Below are positions 35,118 through 58,173 of a stretch of DNA of 64,000 nucleotides, piece after piece (the first letter of the stretch is position 1; each line of letters begins with the position of its first letter). Location of the stretch: the NCBI RefSeq assembly GCF_040675855.1, contig NZ_JBEGIK010000001.1:1178001-1242000 (forward strand). The letters are read 5' to 3'. The notes below the pieces were generated by a model that was not told the DNA's origin, did no database searches, and worked only from the letters and a program-made list of their open reading frames with translations. Position numbers and translations under genes: made by a program. This stretch comes from Microbacterium sp. LWH3-1.2 (lineage in GTDB: Bacteria; Actinomycetota; Actinomycetes; Actinomycetales; Microbacteriaceae).

Positions 35118-35244
35118 GGCGTTCTCCCCGTGGATCGTGACCTCGACGTGACCCGGGTACTGAGATTCCTGGCCGTTATGCGACACGATATGGGTGACGG
35201 ATGCCGCGGGGGGATGGCGTCCGCGGAACTCCAGGAGGCCTCGC

Positions 35245-35982
35245 ATGCCCGTTCGCTCCCGTTCACTGCTCGCCGGGCTCGGCCTGGCGCTCCTCGCCGC
35301 AGGCCTTCTGACCGCCTGCGCGGTGCCCGCCGGCGGCGGCGCCACTCCGACGCCGGCTGCGACCGGCAACGACGACGACAGCAGCAACGAGCAGGAGGTC
35401 GGCGCGGCCTGGCTCGACGGCGGCCGCATGATCGGCATCGTCACGCAGGGCAGCTCGACGTGCATCCCGGTCGCCGAGGAGGCCACCTATGACGACGGCG
35501 TCATGATGGTCACCCTCGTCGACGCCGAGGACGACGAGGCCTGCACGGCTGACCTCGTTCCGCGGGTGACTCTCGTGGGCACGCCTGCCGACGTCGATCC
35601 CGTCAACGGCGTGGAGATCGAGGTGACCGGTGACGGCTGGCGCGGCGACACCGATCTCGAGGGCGTCTCGGGCCTCGCGGTGGGCGGCGAGACGGACTAC
35701 CTGCCGAGCGCGGGATGGACCGATGTCGACGGCCAGTTCGTGATCCTGTCGTGGGGCTCTTCCTCCTGCGCGCCGCAGGTCGAGAGCACCGAGCCGACGA
35801 GCGCGACCGAGGTCACGGTGACGTTCGTCACCCCGCCTGCCGACCAGGTCTGCACGATGGACATGGCCGCGCGCGGCGTCGTGACCGCGGTGAACGGCCT
35901 GGAGGACGAGGACGCAGAGACCTTCGCGATCCTCACCGGCGGCGAGTTCGACAACATCCGCATCCCGATCTACCCCAACTGA
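35245..35982 (+). CDS. Putative lipoprotein of unknown function
   Basis: A 245-residue secreted lipoprotein. AGGAGG lies just upstream of ATG 35245. The signal is RSRSLLAGLGLALLAAG with lipobox LLTAC, so Cys is about residue 23. A Thr/Pro/Asp-rich linker follows, then two similar halves: GIVTQGSSTCIPVAEEATYDDGVMMVTL and VILSWGSSSCAPQVESTEPTSATEVTVTF, each with a downstream CTADL or CTMDM motif. The two halves look like an internal duplication with paired cysteines. No function can be assigned. Confidence 0.85.
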   Translation: MPVRSRSLLAGLGLALLAAGLLTACAVPAGGGATPTPAATGNDDDSSNEQEVGAAWLDGGRMIGIVTQGSSTCIPVAEEATYDDGVMMVTLVDAEDDEACTADLVPRVTLVGTPADVDPVNGVEIEVTGDGWRGDTDLEGVSGLAVGGETDYLPSAGWTDVDGQFVILSWGSSSCAPQVESTEPTSATEVTVTFVTPPADQVCTMDMAARGVVTAVNGLEDEDAETFAILTGGEFDNIRIPIYPN

Positions 35983-36007
35983 CGCCGGCCCAGCTCATGT
36001 GCCTTCT

Positions 36008-36058
36008 GCTCACCTGTCACAAGCGGCCGCTCCGAGTGGCACTTCGTGACAGGTGAGC
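36008..36058 (-). repeat. 51-bp palindromic element, copy A
   Basis: Left arm GCTCACCTGTCAC and right arm GTGACAGGTGAGC are perfect 13-bp complements around 25 bp. The interior (ending CACTTC) matches the other copies when read on the minus strand. It lies 25 bp after the lipoprotein stop and could double as a terminator. Confidence 0.85.
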
Positions 36059-36080
36059 TCCGGACGCCGGCGCGATTATT

Positions 36081-36131
36081 GCTCACCTGTCACGATGTGT
36101 CGGACGACGAGGCACCTTGTGACAGGTGAGC
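36081..36131 (+). repeat. 51-bp palindromic element, copy B
   Basis: The same perfect 13-bp arms as copy A flank a 25-bp interior beginning GATGTGTCGG, so the interior has the plus orientation. Confidence 0.85.
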
Positions 36132-36223
36132 GGGGAGGGCGGGGTCGCGCCTCGGCATCTATGGCTCCGTTTCCGCAACCGGGTCCTGACCTGCGCTCAC
36201 CCGCGGGGCCCCGGCACTGAGGT

Positions 36224-36274
36224 GCTCGACTGTCCCGAATTGTCGCCCGCATCGACATTTTGGGACAGGGGAGC
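36224..36274 (+). repeat. 51-bp palindromic element, diverged copy C
   Basis: Arms GCTCGACTGTCCC and GGGACAGGGGAGC pair with two mismatches. The length and the interior (GAATTGTCGCCCGCATCGAC) match the family, especially the tandem array units. Confidence 0.75.
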
Positions 36275-36391
36275 CGAGGAGTGCGGGGTCCAGACGTTGC
36301 TTCCTCCACACGCCGGCCGGGTCGTGGACCCTCCACAGAGTCGAACTGACACCCACGATGCGGACGGCACGCAGGTCATGCTTCTCGTGTG

Positions 36392-37351
36392 ATGCGACCC
36401 CTCCCGGAAGACCTCGGGCCCCGGTTCTCCGTTCGGCAGGCGAAGAGTGCCGGAGTGTCGACCGGGCGGCTGCGTCGCACCGACGTGGACAAGCCCTTTC
36501 ACGGGGTGCGAGTGGTCAGCGACGCCACCCTCCCGGAGGAGCTCGAAATGGATCGCTGGGGCCGGGCTCTCGGTCCCGCCGAGCGAGCCCACCTCGCACG
36601 GGCGCTCGCCTACGCGACGCGGATGTCCGAGGGCGAGTTCTTCAGCCACATCACCGCCGCGGTCATCCTCGGGATTCCTCTCCCGTACCTCCTGGTCGCG
36701 CGATCGCTGCTGCATGTGTCGGTGTTCCGCCCGCGACGGCTTCCCCGCAGTCTCGGTGTCCGCGGGCACGAAGCCAAGCCGTCGCTTGTGACCGCCACGC
36801 GTGATGAGCGCTCAGGCTTGGTCATCGCGACGCCCGCGGCGGTCTGGGCGAGTCTCGGACGACAGTTGATCGATCCGTACGACCTCGTCGCGGCCGGAGA
36901 TGCGGTGGTCCGGACATGGCGCGTCGAATCGCCGCTCGCGACGCTCGCCGATCTCCAGACCGCGGTCTCGGCGGGCCGCAGAGTCGGCGTGGTGGCCGCC
37001 CGACTGGCGCTGCCGCGCGTGCGAACCGACTCCGCATCTCGCACCGAGTCCTGGCTGCGCCTCACGCTCATCGATCACGGTCTGCGCGAGCCCGAGCGTA
37101 ACCACGAGGTCTTCGCAGGCGGCATCTACCTGGGGTGCGTCGACCTCGCCTACCCTGACCTGAAGATCGCGATCGAGTATGAGGGTGCGCATCACCTCCT
37201 CGATCCGGAGCAATGGGCGCGCGATATCGCGCGCTACGAGGGACTTCGCGCCGCAGGATGGATCGTCGTCCAGATCACCAAGGCCGAACTCTTCGACCAG
37301 CCTGCGGTAGCGGTGCAGCGGGTGCGCGCGGCGATCCGTCGCCGGGGTTGA
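36392..37351 (+). CDS. DUF559/Vsr-like endonuclease-domain protein with N-terminal AbiEi-like region
   Basis: A 319-residue protein. The N-terminal region (SVRQAKSAGVSTGRLRRTDV, about 14-33) resembles the winged-helix segment of AbiEi-type antitoxins. The C-terminal 90 residues have a DUF559 or very-short-patch-repair-like PD-(D/E)xK fold: Asp251 in GCVDLAYP, Glu262 and Glu264 in IAIEYEG, then HHL and GWIVVQITKAELF. These proteins are often multicopy in actinobacteria and annotated as AbiEi antitoxins, with no known function. The gene stands alone and is flanked by 51-bp palindromes on the left and a seven-copy array of them on the right. ATG 36392 and GTG 36389 are both possible starts. Confidence 0.8.
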   Translation: MRPLPEDLGPRFSVRQAKSAGVSTGRLRRTDVDKPFHGVRVVSDATLPEELEMDRWGRALGPAERAHLARALAYATRMSEGEFFSHITAAVILGIPLPYLLVARSLLHVSVFRPRRLPRSLGVRGHEAKPSLVTATRDERSGLVIATPAAVWASLGRQLIDPYDLVAAGDAVVRTWRVESPLATLADLQTAVSAGRRVGVVAARLALPRVRTDSASRTESWLRLTLIDHGLREPERNHEVFAGGIYLGCVDLAYPDLKIAIEYEGAHHLLDPEQWARDIARYEGLRAAGWIVVQITKAELFDQPAVAVQRVRAAIRRRG

Positions 37352-37405
37352 GTCGACCGCCGCCGCACCGTCCACGTCGCTGCTTCACAGCGACGAGAGT
37401 GCACA

Positions 37406-37440
37406 GATTCCGGATGCCGCGGCCCGCAGCATCCGGAATC
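37406..37440. terminator. Hairpin after the nuclease-like gene
   Basis: Arms GATTCCGGATGC and GCATCCGGAATC (12 bp, perfect) enclose 11 nt. The GGATGC/GCATCC core is shared with several other terminators in the window. Confidence 0.65.
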
Positions 37441-37446
37441 CACATT

Positions 37447-37935
37447 GCTCGCCTGGCGCAAGGTGCCACCCGTCTCGGCGCTTTGTGACAGGTGGGCGAC
37501 TTCGGCCCGGGGTGCTGCGGCTCGCCTGGCGCGAAGTGCCGCCCACCTCGGCGCGTTGTGACAGGTGAGCGACTTCGGCCCCGGGTGCTGCGGCTCGCCT
37601 GGCGCGAAGTGTCGCCCACCTCGGCGCGTTGTGACAGGTGAGCGACTTCGGCCCCGGGTGCTGCGGCTCGCCTGGCGCGAAGTGTCGCCCACCTCGGCGC
37701 TTTGTGACAGGTGGGCGACTTCGGCCCGGGGTGCTGCGGCTCGCCTGGCGCGAAGTGTCGCCCATCTCGGCGCTTTGTGACAGGTGGGCGACTTCGGCCC
37801 GGGGTGCTGCGGCTCGCCTGGCGCGAAGTGCCGCCCACCTCGGCGCGTTGTGACAGGTGAGCGACTTCGGCCCCGGGTGCTGCGGCTCGCCTGGCGCGAA
37901 GTGTCGCCCACCTCGGCGCTTTGTGACAGGTGAGC
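37447..37935 (+). repeat. Tandem array of seven 51-bp palindromic elements (73-bp period)
   Basis: Each unit is a 51-bp element (arms GCTCGCCTGGCGC and GTGACAGGTGAGC or GTGACAGGTGGGC around 25 bp starting GAAGTG) plus a 22-bp linker GACTTCGGCC[C/CC]GGG...TGCG. Units start at 37447, 37520, 37593, 37666, 37739, 37812 and 37885. The first unit is the most diverged and the rest differ at few positions, consistent with expansion by unequal exchange or slippage. The left arm is drifted relative to free copies A and B. There is no spacer variability and no adjacent cas gene, so it is not a CRISPR. Confidence 0.92.
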
Positions 37936-38030
37936 AGGAGGGCGGGGGTGGGGTGGGGGTGGGGGCGGAGCAGGGGGGCGGGGCGGAGCGGGGGTGGGGG
38001 CGCAGCGGGGGTGGGGGCGAGCAGGGGGCG
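37936..38030 (+). repeat. G-run tract with potential to form G-quadruplexes
   Basis: About 95 bp dominated by runs of four to six G separated by single T, C or A bases, with nearly repeated GCGGGGGTGGGGG units. It lies between the tandem array and the 3' end of the XRE gene. Confidence 0.75.
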
Positions 38031-38033
38031 ATG

Positions 38034-38267
38034 TCAGGTGTCGGCCCGGACGAGCAGGTCGCCGATCTCGCAATCGAGCGTCCGGCAGATCGCCGACAGG
38101 GTCGAGTAGCGGATCGCGCGTGCGCGATCGTTCTTGAGGATCGACAGGTTCACGACCGAGACGCCGACGAGCTCCGAGAGCCGGGTGAGCGTCATCCCGC
38201 GCTCGAGCAGCAGCTCGTCGAGGCGGCAGTGGACGCCGGAGGGTCCGTCGTCGTCCGCTGGGCTCAC
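38034..38267 (-). CDS. XRE-family small HTH regulator (YozG-like)
   Basis: A 77-residue protein that is essentially one helix-turn-helix: CRLDELLLERGMTLTRLSELVGVSVVNLSILKNDRARAIRYSTLSAICRTLDCEIGDLLV. The GTG start overlaps the stop of the upstream DUF2975 gene by four bases. Pairs of a DUF2975 membrane protein and this kind of regulator are common in Gram-positive bacteria. It likely binds the TATCG-rich sites upstream of the pair. Confidence 0.9.
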   Translation of the reverse strand: MSPADDDGPSGVHCRLDELLLERGMTLTRLSELVGVSVVNLSILKNDRARAIRYSTLSAICRTLDCEIGDLLVRADT

Positions 38268-39001
38268 ACCAGGGCCTCCGTATCCTTCTGCATGCGGGTG
38301 CCGATCTGGAAGGCCGCCGCCACGAGGGCGAGCCCGAGCGACCAGCCGATCGGCGCGAGATCGAGTACGAGGGTCCAGCCCGTGAGCCCCTCGTACGGCC
38401 CGGCGCCCATGTCGCCGGCGGTGATCACACGCTCGGCCAGGAACGCGGCGACCGATCCCCGTGCCGCGCTGGCGGCCACCTGGGAACCGATCCCACCGAC
38501 CAGCACCGCGATGGCCGCGACTCCGACGACGTTCGGCAGCGAGCGGACGAACGGACGCCCCCGCAGCAGAGCGATCGCGAGCCACGAGACGGCGACGCCG
38601 ATCGCGAGCGCCGCAAGGAGCGGCAGTGCGGACTCGAGGGAGAGCAGCCAGCGCGTCCCGTCCGGCAGGCCCGCGACGTCCAGCCACACGGACTCATACC
38701 CGGCGCCGACGATCGCGTCGGACTTCTCGGTGAACTCGGGCACGAGGGCGTTCGCGAGCGGGAAGCCCGCGACGCGCGAGGGGTCCGCCGCGAAGACCTG
38801 CACCGCGGTCCCCACGAGGAGGACGGCGCTCCCCGCCGCGACGAGCATCGCGCCTGTTCCCACCGCGGCGACCACCCACTCCTCGAGGCGCGACAGCACC
38901 CCGGGTTCGCCGGTGCGACGGATCCGCACCATGAGGACCACGACGATAGTGCCGACAAGGACCGGCACACCGACCCACAGCGCGAGGAACTGCCAGACCA
39001 T
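38264..39001 (-). CDS. DUF2975-like membrane protein
   Basis: A 245-residue protein with five or six hydrophobic helices, starting FLALWVGVPVLVGTIVVVLMV. Between helices 2 and 3 is a 60-residue extracytoplasmic segment. The last helix (IGWSLGLALVAAAFQIGTRMQ) with its trailing acidic tail fits the DUF2975 pattern. Assignment rests on topology and the linked XRE gene. ATG 39001 has GGAGACG 5 nt upstream. Function unknown; such pairs respond to membrane perturbation in some bacteria, which is inference here. Confidence 0.75.
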   Translation of the reverse strand: MVWQFLALWVGVPVLVGTIVVVLMVRIRRTGEPGVLSRLEEWVVAAVGTGAMLVAAGSAVLLVGTAVQVFAADPSRVAGFPLANALVPEFTEKSDAIVGAGYESVWLDVAGLPDGTRWLLSLESALPLLAALAIGVAVSWLAIALLRGRPFVRSLPNVVGVAAIAVLVGGIGSQVAASAARGSVAAFLAERVITAGDMGAGPYEGLTGWTLVLDLAPIGWSLGLALVAAAFQIGTRMQKDTEALV

Positions 39002-58122: not shown

Positions 58123-58173
58123 GCTCACCTGTCACGAAGTGCTGAGCCGCGCGGCAGATCGCGGCAGGTGAGC
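58123..58173 (+). repeat. 51-bp palindromic element, isolated copy D
   Basis: The left arm GCTCACCTGTCAC is identical to copies A and B and the right arm GCGGCAGGTGAGC has drifted at two or three positions. The interior begins GAAGTG as in the array. It lies between the GntR gene and the gene at 58212, about 20 kb from the other copies. Confidence 0.8.

What the first reader, a model, noticed from the sequence alone, without database searches (positions are those of the whole stretch)
36008..37935. Family of 51-bp palindromic elements flanking a Vsr/DUF559-like nuclease gene
The sequence shows three free copies (36008-36058, 36081-36131, 36224-36274) left of the gene at 36392-37351 and a seven-copy array right of it. 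All have exactly 13+25+13 bp with arms GCTCACCTGTCAC / GTGACAGGTGAGC and an interior beginning GAAGTG or close to it. Constant length and arm conservation point to a REP- or MITE-like element or a binding site. The linkage suggests, by analogy with REP elements and RAYT proteins, that the nuclease-like protein may recognise or mobilise the repeat. The analogy is inference.
Basis: partly seen in the sequence, partly recalled or inferred. Interest (0 to 1): 0.75.

Follow-up and report, generated by a model that had tools for sequence, protein, structure and literature searches.

The report
Nuclease genes with matching DNA palindromes
In Microbacterium and related bacteria, genes for a DNA-cutting-type protein sit between copies of a palindrome of their own, and that same palindrome is scattered through the genome, which looks like a previously unnoticed protein-and-repeat partnership similar to, but built from different parts than, the known REP repeats.

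Summary
Ten 51-bp (13+25+13) palindromes bracket the MTES_1575/DUF559-type nuclease-like gene (36389-37351). The genome (Microbacterium) has 42 copies at <=3 mismatches, against 0 for the reversed pattern.

The link to the gene is a rule. Matched palindromes lie on both sides of 54 of 71 close homologues, 6 of 8 more distant and 1 of 16 most distant ones, against 1 of 69 control genes, and that one is itself this nuclease. Palindrome sequence differs between nuclease lineages. In G190, three nucleases have three palindromes, all dispersed. A palindrome read off a distant homologue in G021 predicted 21 copies there and none in five other genomes. At one locus, neighbour genes 91-93% identical enclose different nucleases, and the palindrome follows the nuclease. 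Spacing between neighbouring palindromes favours multiples of 10.5 bp, suggesting double-stranded protein-binding sites. Four copies sit in frame inside conserved genes. No RAYT-type transposase was found in 14 genomes. Against: 10 of 21 genomes with >=4 copies lack a flanked nuclease of this clade, so loss must be assumed.

Best reading: a REPtron-like nuclease-palindrome pair with no shared components. Recognition is inferred with good support; mobilisation is unproven.

The parts
36008..36058 (.). 51-bp palindrome, upstream copy 1 (exact consensus arms)
36081..36131 (.). 51-bp palindrome, upstream copy 2 (exact consensus arms; start-to-start 73 bp from copy 1)
36224..36274 (.). 51-bp palindrome, upstream copy 3, diverged arms
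   Evidence: not reached by the 3-mismatch pattern, reached
36389..37351 (+). Nuclease-like gene, 320 aa. C-terminal MTES_1575/DUF559 (Vsr-type PD-(D/E)XK) domain; N-terminal region perhaps AbiEi-like wHTH (weak). Invariant E220, D252, E263, H269, D279 among 56 homologues
37447..37497 (.). 51-bp palindrome, downstream array copy 1
37520..37570 (.). 51-bp palindrome, downstream array copy 2
37593..37643 (.). 51-bp palindrome, downstream array copy 3
37666..37716 (.). 51-bp palindrome, downstream array copy 4
37739..37789 (.). 51-bp palindrome, downstream array copy 5
37812..37862 (.). 51-bp palindrome, downstream array copy 6
37885..37935 (.). 51-bp palindrome, downstream array copy 7 (period 73 bp = about 7 helical turns)
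58123..58173 (.). Dispersed 51-bp palindrome in an intergenic gap; the flanks match stretches of G095, G017 and G177 chosen for holding the element, and in G095 the site itself is shared
35983..38033 (.). Whole cassette (palindromes + nuclease + palindromes) between a lipoprotein gene (35194-35982, +) and an XRE regulator (38034-38267, -); absent or replaced as a block in relatives

Best explanation
This is a cognate nuclease-palindrome system, analogous to a REPtron (RAYT gene plus its REP repeats) but made of unrelated parts.
SHOWN by sequence statistics: genes of this MTES_1575/DUF559 family tend to carry, on both sides, matched palindromes of roughly 50-65 bp peculiar to their own lineage. 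Where tested, those palindromes are also dispersed in the same genome. The cassette (palindromes-gene-palindromes) is present, absent, replaced or relocated as a block.
INFERRED, likely: a dimer of the protein binds each palindrome as double-stranded DNA, with variable base pairs inside a GYTC-NNNN-GTCRC-like arm setting specificity. Neighbouring palindromes lie on the same face of the helix so that bound proteins touch, which would also autoregulate the gene. Genomes with copies but no cognate nuclease have lost it.
INFERRED, less certain: the nuclease occasionally cuts or nicks at or near the palindromes. Repair from other copies then duplicates them in tandem, seeds new sites in gene gaps (now and then in frame inside genes) and lets the cassette move or replace a relative.
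For: Both-side matching: 54 of 71 loci at >=100 bits, 6 of 8 at 60-100, 1 of 16 below 60; controls 1 of 69 (which is G095's own nuclease), 1 of 100, mismatched flank pairs 5 of 285. Same element on both sides in all 10 top homologues (in L057 one side rests on a 7-mismatch match). Prediction test: 61-bp palindrome from the flanks of a 45%-identical homologue gives 21 copies in G021, 0 in five other genomes, control 0. In G190 three of its four homologues were examined and their three palindrome families are all dispersed (11, 11 and 7 copies in 400 kb); the two types foreign to G095 and G000 are absent from 400 kb and 300 kb of those, with one reversed-arm control match in G000. The G054 copies listed (not all 74), dispersed ones and those beside its nuclease, mostly carry arm CACGTG(T/G)CGC. 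Palindrome follows gene, not place: G062 lipoprotein and XRE are 91% and 93% identical to G000's but its nuclease only 48-51% with other palindromes, while G095 has lipoprotein 75%, nuclease 83%, same palindrome; L050, L051, L057 nest inside the clade but sit elsewhere. Empty sites: lipoprotein and XRE 3' ends adjacent without nuclease in 8 of 16 loci looked at. dsDNA sites: spacer exactly 25 in 161 distinct sequences, 24 in 2, 26 in 0; spacings near n x 10.5 bp in other families; 5 of 25 column pairs covary at z above 4, the others weakly or not. Co-occurrence 11 of 21 versus 0 of 20 genomes. In-frame intragenic copies: 4.
Against: No binding or cleavage was tested. No structure could be predicted, and the wHTH call is weak (AbiEi_4 in 2 of 56 members). 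Ten of 21 genomes with >=4 copies (4-29 copies) have no flanked nuclease of the 51-bp clade, so loss has to be assumed; one of them, G045, has a clade member with other arms. Dispersed copies in G000 have random central 7 bp (3.04 matches against 2.86 expected), so no recent copy-and-paste is seen there. No insertion junction or target duplication could be read. Empty PLD-locus sites hold no 51-bp palindrome (0 of 16 loci at <=7 mismatches), which argues against plain homing into a palindrome. 17 of 71 close homologues show no match by this test and only 1 of 16 distant ones does. L002 and L178 repeat at 39-40 bp, which is not a multiple of 10.5; with these and three long spacings included the phasing falls to R 0.57, best period 10.35. 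Some stem columns do covary. Co-occurrence is not corrected for phylogeny and the 20 zero-copy genomes were picked by hand.
Confidence: 0.7

Rival explanations
1. Purely regulatory: the palindromes are operators of an AbiEi-like wHTH protein that represses itself and a set of dispersed genes; nothing is mobile and the nuclease domain is incidental.
For: Helically phased, exactly spaced dyads are what a cooperative repressor would need. Flanking copies lie close to the gene, within about 400 bp. Dispersed copies keep conserved arms around a random centre, as selected sites would. Cooperative binding and bending by AbiEi is recalled, not from a call.
Against: Sites avoid promoters: 4 divergent gaps of 78 against 116 of 349 background, and 37 of 78 convergent against 56 of 349. 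Four copies sit inside reading frames. An operator does not explain matched copies downstream of the gene in most close homologues.
Confidence: 0.18
2. Bidirectional transcription terminators or mRNA-stabilising hairpins that happen to be alike.
For: The three upstream copies fold far better than shuffles as single strands (z -6.2, -6.0, -5.0); the two array copies folded give z -1.9 and -3.0, and -1.6 for the other strand of one. Enrichment in convergent gaps. Five of 25 column pairs covary at z above 4.
Against: No terminator-like site in the region, against 0.6 in shuffles. Most stem columns barely covary. Exact 25-bp spacer and 10.5-bp phasing are irrelevant to a terminator. A different hairpin family (GGATGCC...GGCATCC) lies in several of these gaps, including some empty ones. 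In-frame intragenic copies. The lineage-specific link to a nuclease gene would be unexplained.
Confidence: 0.03
3. Ordinary REP or MITE repeats driven by another transposase (RAYT/IS200-type or an unrelated transposon), with the nuclease a passenger.
For: Short, dispersed, extragenic palindromes in pairs and arrays resemble REP/BIME and MITE families (PMC8266576 and PMC2229807, passages seen). Ten of 21 genomes with >=4 copies lack a flanked nuclease of the clade.
Against: Y1_Tnp is absent from 14 of 14 genomes searched, while 5 of 14 control genomes ring; other transposases were not searched. Specific matching of palindrome families to their own nuclease lineages. GTAG/CTAC occurs in 3 of 185 distinct elements and beside 0 of the G000 copies.
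Confidence: 0.06
4. Defence or self-marking device: the nuclease attacks foreign DNA and the host palindromes titrate, load or restrain it.
For: Vsr-type/MTES_1575 domains were described in proposed defence proteins (PMC3710099, passages seen); turnover and replacement of the cassette at one locus is typical of conflict systems.
Against: PADLOC, run on the nuclease only, gives a weak generic hit (mREase_II, E 0.056). Copies per genome vary from 4 to 98 among carriers.
Confidence: 0.08

Closest known systems
REPtron: RAYT/TnpA-REP with REP/BIME repeats
   Same: A gene beside short cognate palindromes that are also dispersed genome-wide, often in pairs or arrays (REPtron features as in PMC8266576, passages seen).
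   Different: The protein is a PD-(D/E)XK/Vsr-type nuclease, not HuH/Y1 (0 of 14 genomes have Y1_Tnp). Elements are 51-63 bp symmetric dyads spaced by the turn of the double helix in most arrays, whereas TnpA-REP acts on single-stranded REP. Here the cassette is replaced and relocated, whereas for tnpA-REP no evidence of mobility is reported.
Rickettsia palindromic elements (RPE) and other bacterial MITEs
   Same: Palindromic repeats found between genes and also in frame inside conserved protein genes (PMC2229807, passages seen).
   Different: 51 bp instead of 105-146 bp, and linked to a cognate nuclease gene. Sequences were not compared here.
Vsr-fold (EDxHD) homing endonucleases such as I-Bth0305I (PDB 3r3p)
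   Same: Perhaps the same nuclease superfamily: a weak profile match over the catalytic region (E 0.55, residues 253-302; two unrelated dehydrogenases score slightly better, so it may be chance). Site-specific nuclease gene that may spread itself. The enzyme name behind 3r3p is recalled.
   Different: No intron or intein seen; whole palindromes on both sides; empty sites without a palindrome of this type.
MTES_1575-type REase domain (Pfam PF18741) and DUF559 (PF04480)
   Same: The gene's C-terminal domain; all 56 aligned homologues match both models at E up to 0.1.
   Different: The founding description is a giant HEPN-helicase-REase fusion in a proposed defence setting (PMC3710099). No palindrome link is mentioned in the passages seen.
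AbiEi-type antitoxin/autorepressor (type IV TA)
   Same: Possible N-terminal winged helix (AbiEi_4, 2 of 56); inverted repeats near the gene.
   Different: No AbiEii toxin gene recognised next to this gene, a nuclease domain is fused, and sites are dispersed genome-wide.

Membership tests
RAYT/REP (REPtron) | HuH/Y1 transposase of the TnpA-REP family | tested here: not met
   Gene product is MTES_1575/DUF559; PF01797 in 0 of 14 genomes, 5 of 14 control genomes ring
RAYT/REP (REPtron) | Cognate palindromes next to the gene and dispersed in the genome | tested here: met
RAYT/REP (REPtron) | GTAG tag at the foot of the hairpin | tested here: not met
   GTAG/CTAC in 3 of 185 distinct elements and within 10 bp outside 0 of 44 scanned G000 copies (43 distinct); CGTC/GACG occurs in 64 of 185 and beside 11 of 44 without a position test, so the CGTC tag is not settled
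RAYT/REP (REPtron) | Recognition of single-stranded hairpin | not testable with these tools
   Indirectly disfavoured by limited covariation and 10.5-bp phasing
MITE / RPE-like mobile palindrome | Insertion within genes in frame | tested here: met
   4 copies, all in the same stop-free frame, in an ABC transporter, NadB, a KipI/KipA-like fusion and a CydD-like protein (gene names recalled from sequence)
MITE / RPE-like mobile palindrome | Target-site duplication or readable insertion junction | tested here: inconclusive
   Relatives too diverged in gaps and linkers hypervariable
Homing endonuclease element | Nuclease of a homing family | tested here: inconclusive
   Only a weak profile hit to 3r3p, E 0.55, below two unrelated hits
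Homing endonuclease element | Empty allele carries the recognition site, split by the insertion | tested here: not met
   No 51-bp element at <=7 mismatches in any of 16 PLD loci, eight of which show lipoprotein and XRE adjacent
MTES_1575 / DUF559 nuclease family | Profile match above the curated cut-off | tested here: inconclusive
   Window protein 33.8 bits against 38.2 for PF18741 and 16.9 against 20.6 for DUF559; best members of the alignment 5.8e-11 and 1.4e-07; PF18741 is precomputed for the window protein's own cluster, P0001
Type IV TA (AbiE) | AbiEi antitoxin beside an AbiEii nucleotidyltransferase toxin | tested here: not met
   hmmscan of the lipoprotein, XRE and membrane-protein neighbours shows no nucleotidyltransferase; the next genes out look like a PLD-type synthase and ClpC (names recalled from sequence)
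Intrinsic terminators | GC-rich stem followed by T run | tested here: not met
   0 found in 35500-38500; shuffles mean 0.6

The most novel reading that the evidence does not exclude
A large, undescribed class of selfish nuclease-palindrome cassettes runs through Actinomycetota (shown here to the level of the class; 1 of 16 of the most distant homologues passes the test). Each REase-fold (Vsr/MTES_1575-DUF559) nuclease with an N-terminal DNA-binding domain brackets itself with helically phased arrays of its own binding palindrome. It spreads that palindrome through the genome, and itself between genomes, by cut-and-repair. This would be a convergent counterpart of RAYT/REP with a readable protein-DNA specificity code, since the variable core of a shared GCTC-NNNN-GTCAC arm changes with the protein.
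Probability: 0.4. Interest if true: 0.93.

Novelty: categorically new. Interest (0 to 1): 0.86.

Why it matters
DUF559/MTES_1575 proteins occur widely here (75 of 296 genomes drawn from the phylum have a homologue) and to my knowledge have no assigned function. If each has its own palindrome family, function can be tested at once: the binding site of a member can be read from its flanks. It would be a second, independent origin of the gene-plus-dispersed-palindrome arrangement known so far from RAYT/REP. That bears on how REP-like repeats arise, and would supply many natural pairs for learning how a DNA-binding domain's specificity evolves. It would also explain orphan palindromes in actinobacterial genomes, and short in-frame peptides inserted into conserved enzymes.

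Tried and rejected
One search used a wrong spacer (31 instead of 25) and found nothing; corrected. Rfam search of the region gave two chance-level hits. A first home-made gene caller put ClpC on the wrong strand; its orientation table (7 sites inside genes, 16 divergent) was discarded and redone with a GC-position filter. Strict palindrome scans missed real elements with mismatched stems, so matching of both flanks was used. Reading insertion junctions from G000/G095 gaps failed because gaps are too diverged, and from in-frame copies because linkers are hypervariable. RNA-stem selection was considered and judged less likely on covariation. RAYT-driven spread was rejected. Phage or plasmid carriage was looked for: phages 1 weak record, plasmids 4 weak records. 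Literature: seven searches, of which I saw listings with the starts of abstracts, capped (20 of 104; 15 of 28; 15 of 22; 20 of 447; 10 of 69) and complete in 26 (4) and 73 (14); plus passages of PMC3710099, PMC2229807 and PMC8266576. Nothing seen described this link. In one search the spacings were typed by hand, one value per locus and class, leaving out 39 and 40 (L002, L178) and 133, 146, 153; one search gives the result with them.
Full report
1. WHAT IS THERE. The window lies in a 3.94-Mb genome (G000:C1:1178001-1242000). It is Microbacterium by kinship: all 57 stretches of the named genome collection that hold the exact core pattern are Microbacterium. Three 51-bp palindromes precede and seven follow a 320-aa gene (36389-37351); all ten keep 13+25+13 bp. 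An eleventh copy lies at 58123-58173. The genome has 42 matches at <=3 mismatches and none to the reversed pattern. In the genus 49 of 198 genomes have a match and 21 (own included) have >=4; the reversed pattern gives 0-2 per genome, so single matches are at chance level.

2. THE ELEMENT. The whole 51 bp is a dyad: GCTCRCCTGTCRC + GAWSTGYCG + about 7 free bp + inverse. Among the DNA held, the spacer between arms is 25 in 161 distinct sequences, 24 in 2 and 26 in 0. Eighteen matches at longer spacers (32: 8, 34: 1, 35: 3, 36: 3, 40: 3) are unexplained. In 185 distinct elements both halves are conserved. Five of 25 column pairs covary at z above 4 against shuffles (5/47, 7/45, 8/44, 19/33, 21/31; the shuffles ignore relatedness, and 7/45 fits the arm change of G054), and others, such as 14/38, 16/36 and 18/34, are often mismatched. 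This fits a symmetric double-stranded binding site better than a maintained stem, but is not decisive.

3. SPACING. Neighbouring 51-bp copies start 63-65 (15 pairs), 71-76 (49), 83 or 87 bp (2) apart, with nine single values from 92 to 173. Beside other nucleases, palindromes of other sequence are spaced mostly near 63, 73.5, 84, 94.5 and 105 bp: R at 10.5 bp is 0.76 for the 33 spacings between 45 and 130 bp. With one value per locus and class (n = 21), R = 0.70, the best period between 8 and 15 bp is 10.50 with phase about 0, and 0 of 20000 uniform draws reach this. Left out there were 39 and 40 bp (L002 and L178, 11 spacings) and three values above 130; with them n = 26, R = 0.57, best period 10.35, p about 2e-4. 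So phasing is a strong tendency with exceptions.

4. THE GENE. Pfam MTES_1575 (33.8 bits, cut-off 38.2) and DUF559 (16.9, cut-off 20.6) match the C-terminal part; both match 56 of 56 aligned homologues at E up to 0.1, and AbiEi_4 matches 2 of 56. Invariant residues include E220, D252, E263, H269 and D279, as expected of an intact PD-(D/E)XK/Vsr-type active site (motif reading recalled). In the solved-structure search the only nuclease is 3r3p, 'Mobile intron protein', E 0.55, below two dehydrogenases at E 0.24-0.25, so it may be chance.

5. LINK TO THE GENE FAMILY. In 40 relatives (20 with >=4 copies, 20 hand-picked with none) 30 loci came with DNA. The ten best homologues (53-83% identical) all have 51-bp elements on both sides (in L057 one side rests on a 7-mismatch match). 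Of the other 20 loci, 18 have no match and L064 and L075 one weak match each (6 and 7 mismatches); many have palindromes of their own. A uniform test asked for the same 9-bp arm (<=1 mismatch) and the same span (+-1) in the 420 bp on each side. It gives 54 of 71 loci at >=100 bits, 6 of 8 at 60-100 bits and 1 of 16 below 60. Three of 98 loci were dropped beforehand for short flanks. Controls: 1 of 69 genes with >=80-bp gaps (that one is G095's nuclease), 1 of 100 sampled from 338 other genes, and 5 of 285 mismatched flank pairs. An independent measure, flank-to-flank similarity, exceeds the 99th percentile of mismatched pairs in 51 of 95 loci. Five of the six positives at 60-100 bits come from other genera of the same order or class; beyond the class the test has little support.

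6. PREDICTIONS MET. The 61-bp palindrome flanking a 45%-identical homologue in G021 occurs 21 times in G021 and in none of five other genomes, control 0. G190 has four homologues; three were examined and have three different palindromes. In one 400-kb stretch there are 11 copies of the 51-bp type, 11 of the L135 type (its nuclease is more than 700 kb away) and 7 of the L136 type, two of which flank its nuclease. The latter two types are absent from 400 kb of G095 and 300 kb of G000; reversed-arm controls give 0, except 1 in G000 for the L135 type. G000's own paralogue (L002) also has its motif in arrays elsewhere in G000, in L258 and, more weakly, L247. In G054 the copies listed (part of 74), dispersed ones and those beside the nuclease alike, mostly share an arm change to CACGTG(T/G)CGC.

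7. CASSETTE BEHAVIOUR. Eighteen loci group by their flanks at the PLD-lipoprotein ... XRE/ClpC place. In 8 of 16 further PLD loci lipoprotein and XRE meet with only a gap between them, sometimes with another hairpin; none of the 16 holds a 51-bp element at <=7 mismatches. Seven others showed no XRE in the stretch and one (G190) has the nuclease L135. In the tree of 74 nucleases the 51-bp type falls in one 12-row clade (100/97) that also holds L058, whose palindrome has the same length but other arms. L050, L051 and L057 lie within this clade but sit elsewhere in their genomes. G062 has lipoprotein 91%, XRE 93%, PLD 96% (52-residue piece) and membrane protein 82% identical to G000, yet a nuclease of 48-51% with arms GCTC-CGCA-GTCAC. 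G095 has lipoprotein 75%, XRE 91%, nuclease 83% and the same palindrome as G000. So the palindrome goes with the nuclease.

8. DISPERSED COPIES. Of 85 element sites in G000 and relatives, 37 are in convergent, 37 in codirectional and 4 in divergent gaps, 5 fall inside called genes and 2 at edges. Background gaps of >=60 bp, from G000 and G095 only: 56 convergent, 177 codirectional, 116 divergent (home-made gene caller; tests). Of the five inside, one ORF is only 120 nt and probably spurious. The other four are in frame in recognisable conserved proteins, all in the same stop-free frame, adding a 17-residue insert of the kind (R/P)SPV...TGE(Q/R). By eye in the alignment, the insert in the ABC transporter is absent from 14 homologues, and in NadB it is shared with G102 and absent from the other 13 genomes. 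Some sites are shared between G000 and G095, others present in only one. The random central 7 bp of dispersed copies in G000 shows they are old or individually maintained, while near neighbours are similar, as after tandem duplication.

9. COPY NUMBER AND NUCLEASE. A flanked nuclease of the 51-bp clade occurs in 11 of 21 genomes with >=4 copies and 0 of 20 with none (p = 1.6e-4; uncorrected for phylogeny). The 11 carriers have 4, 8, 9, 9, 15, 36, 42, 49, 52, 74 and 75 copies; the 10 non-carriers 4, 4, 4, 4, 4, 7, 8, 14, 16 and 29. Among the latter G045 has L058, the clade member with other arms; G079 and G122 have PLD-locus relatives with other arms (L059, L060); G052, G065, G102, G067 and G140 have an empty PLD locus. 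Copies without the nuclease need past loss or another explanation.

10. RIVALS. Y1_Tnp is absent from 14 of 14 genomes; other transposases were not searched. Terminator-like sites are absent. A regulatory role alone does not explain downstream copies, promoter avoidance and in-frame copies, but may be part of the function. PADLOC, run on the nuclease only, gives no clear defence assignment.

11. VERDICT. The pairing of nuclease lineage and palindrome is shown. Recognition of the palindrome as double-stranded DNA by the nuclease is the best inference. Spread by cutting and repair is plausible but unproven. REPtrons work alike in layout, but the defining HuH protein was tested and not met, so this is not filed as a REP/RAYT member. 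Seven literature searches of an open-access library, seen as partly capped listings, showed no description; most subscription papers were not searchable.

Noticed in passing
window 37406-37440 (= L001:2518-2552); also L002, L052, L055, L061, L068, L260, L261, L264: A second recurrent hairpin, GGATGCCGCGG...CCGCGGCATCC and variants, sits in many gaps of this genus, also in some empty cassette sites; it looks like the ordinary terminator or a separate repeat.
   Followed up: partly
G021 contig C1 (3475315 bases): All 21 copies of the 61-bp palindrome lie between 0.229 and 1.867 Mb of the contig, none in the other half; perhaps one replichore, unexplained.
   Followed up: no
window 37936-38040: G-rich low-complexity tract (GGGGTGGGGGC repeats) directly after the palindrome array.
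   Followed up: no
L002 (G000:C1:3791469-3795320), L258:18367-18590, L247:7996-8053: The genome's second nuclease of this family has its own motif TGGCGAYTCGCCA repeated at 39 bp beside the gene; an alternating 39/44-bp array and a 39-bp pair of it occur elsewhere in the genome.
   Followed up: partly
L306 (G045 NadB): NadB of G045 carries a long run of a repeated TPTRSxSEQ-type peptide in the same variable linker where G000 and G102 have the palindrome insert.
   Followed up: no
L204, L212, L081, L094: In-frame palindromes add 17-residue linkers to an ABC transporter, NadB, a KipI/KipA-like fusion and a CydD-like protein.
   Followed up: partly
sequences scanned, spacers 32-40: Eighteen matches to the arms with spacers of 32, 34, 35, 36 and 40 instead of 25; possibly another palindrome family with similar arms.
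   Followed up: no
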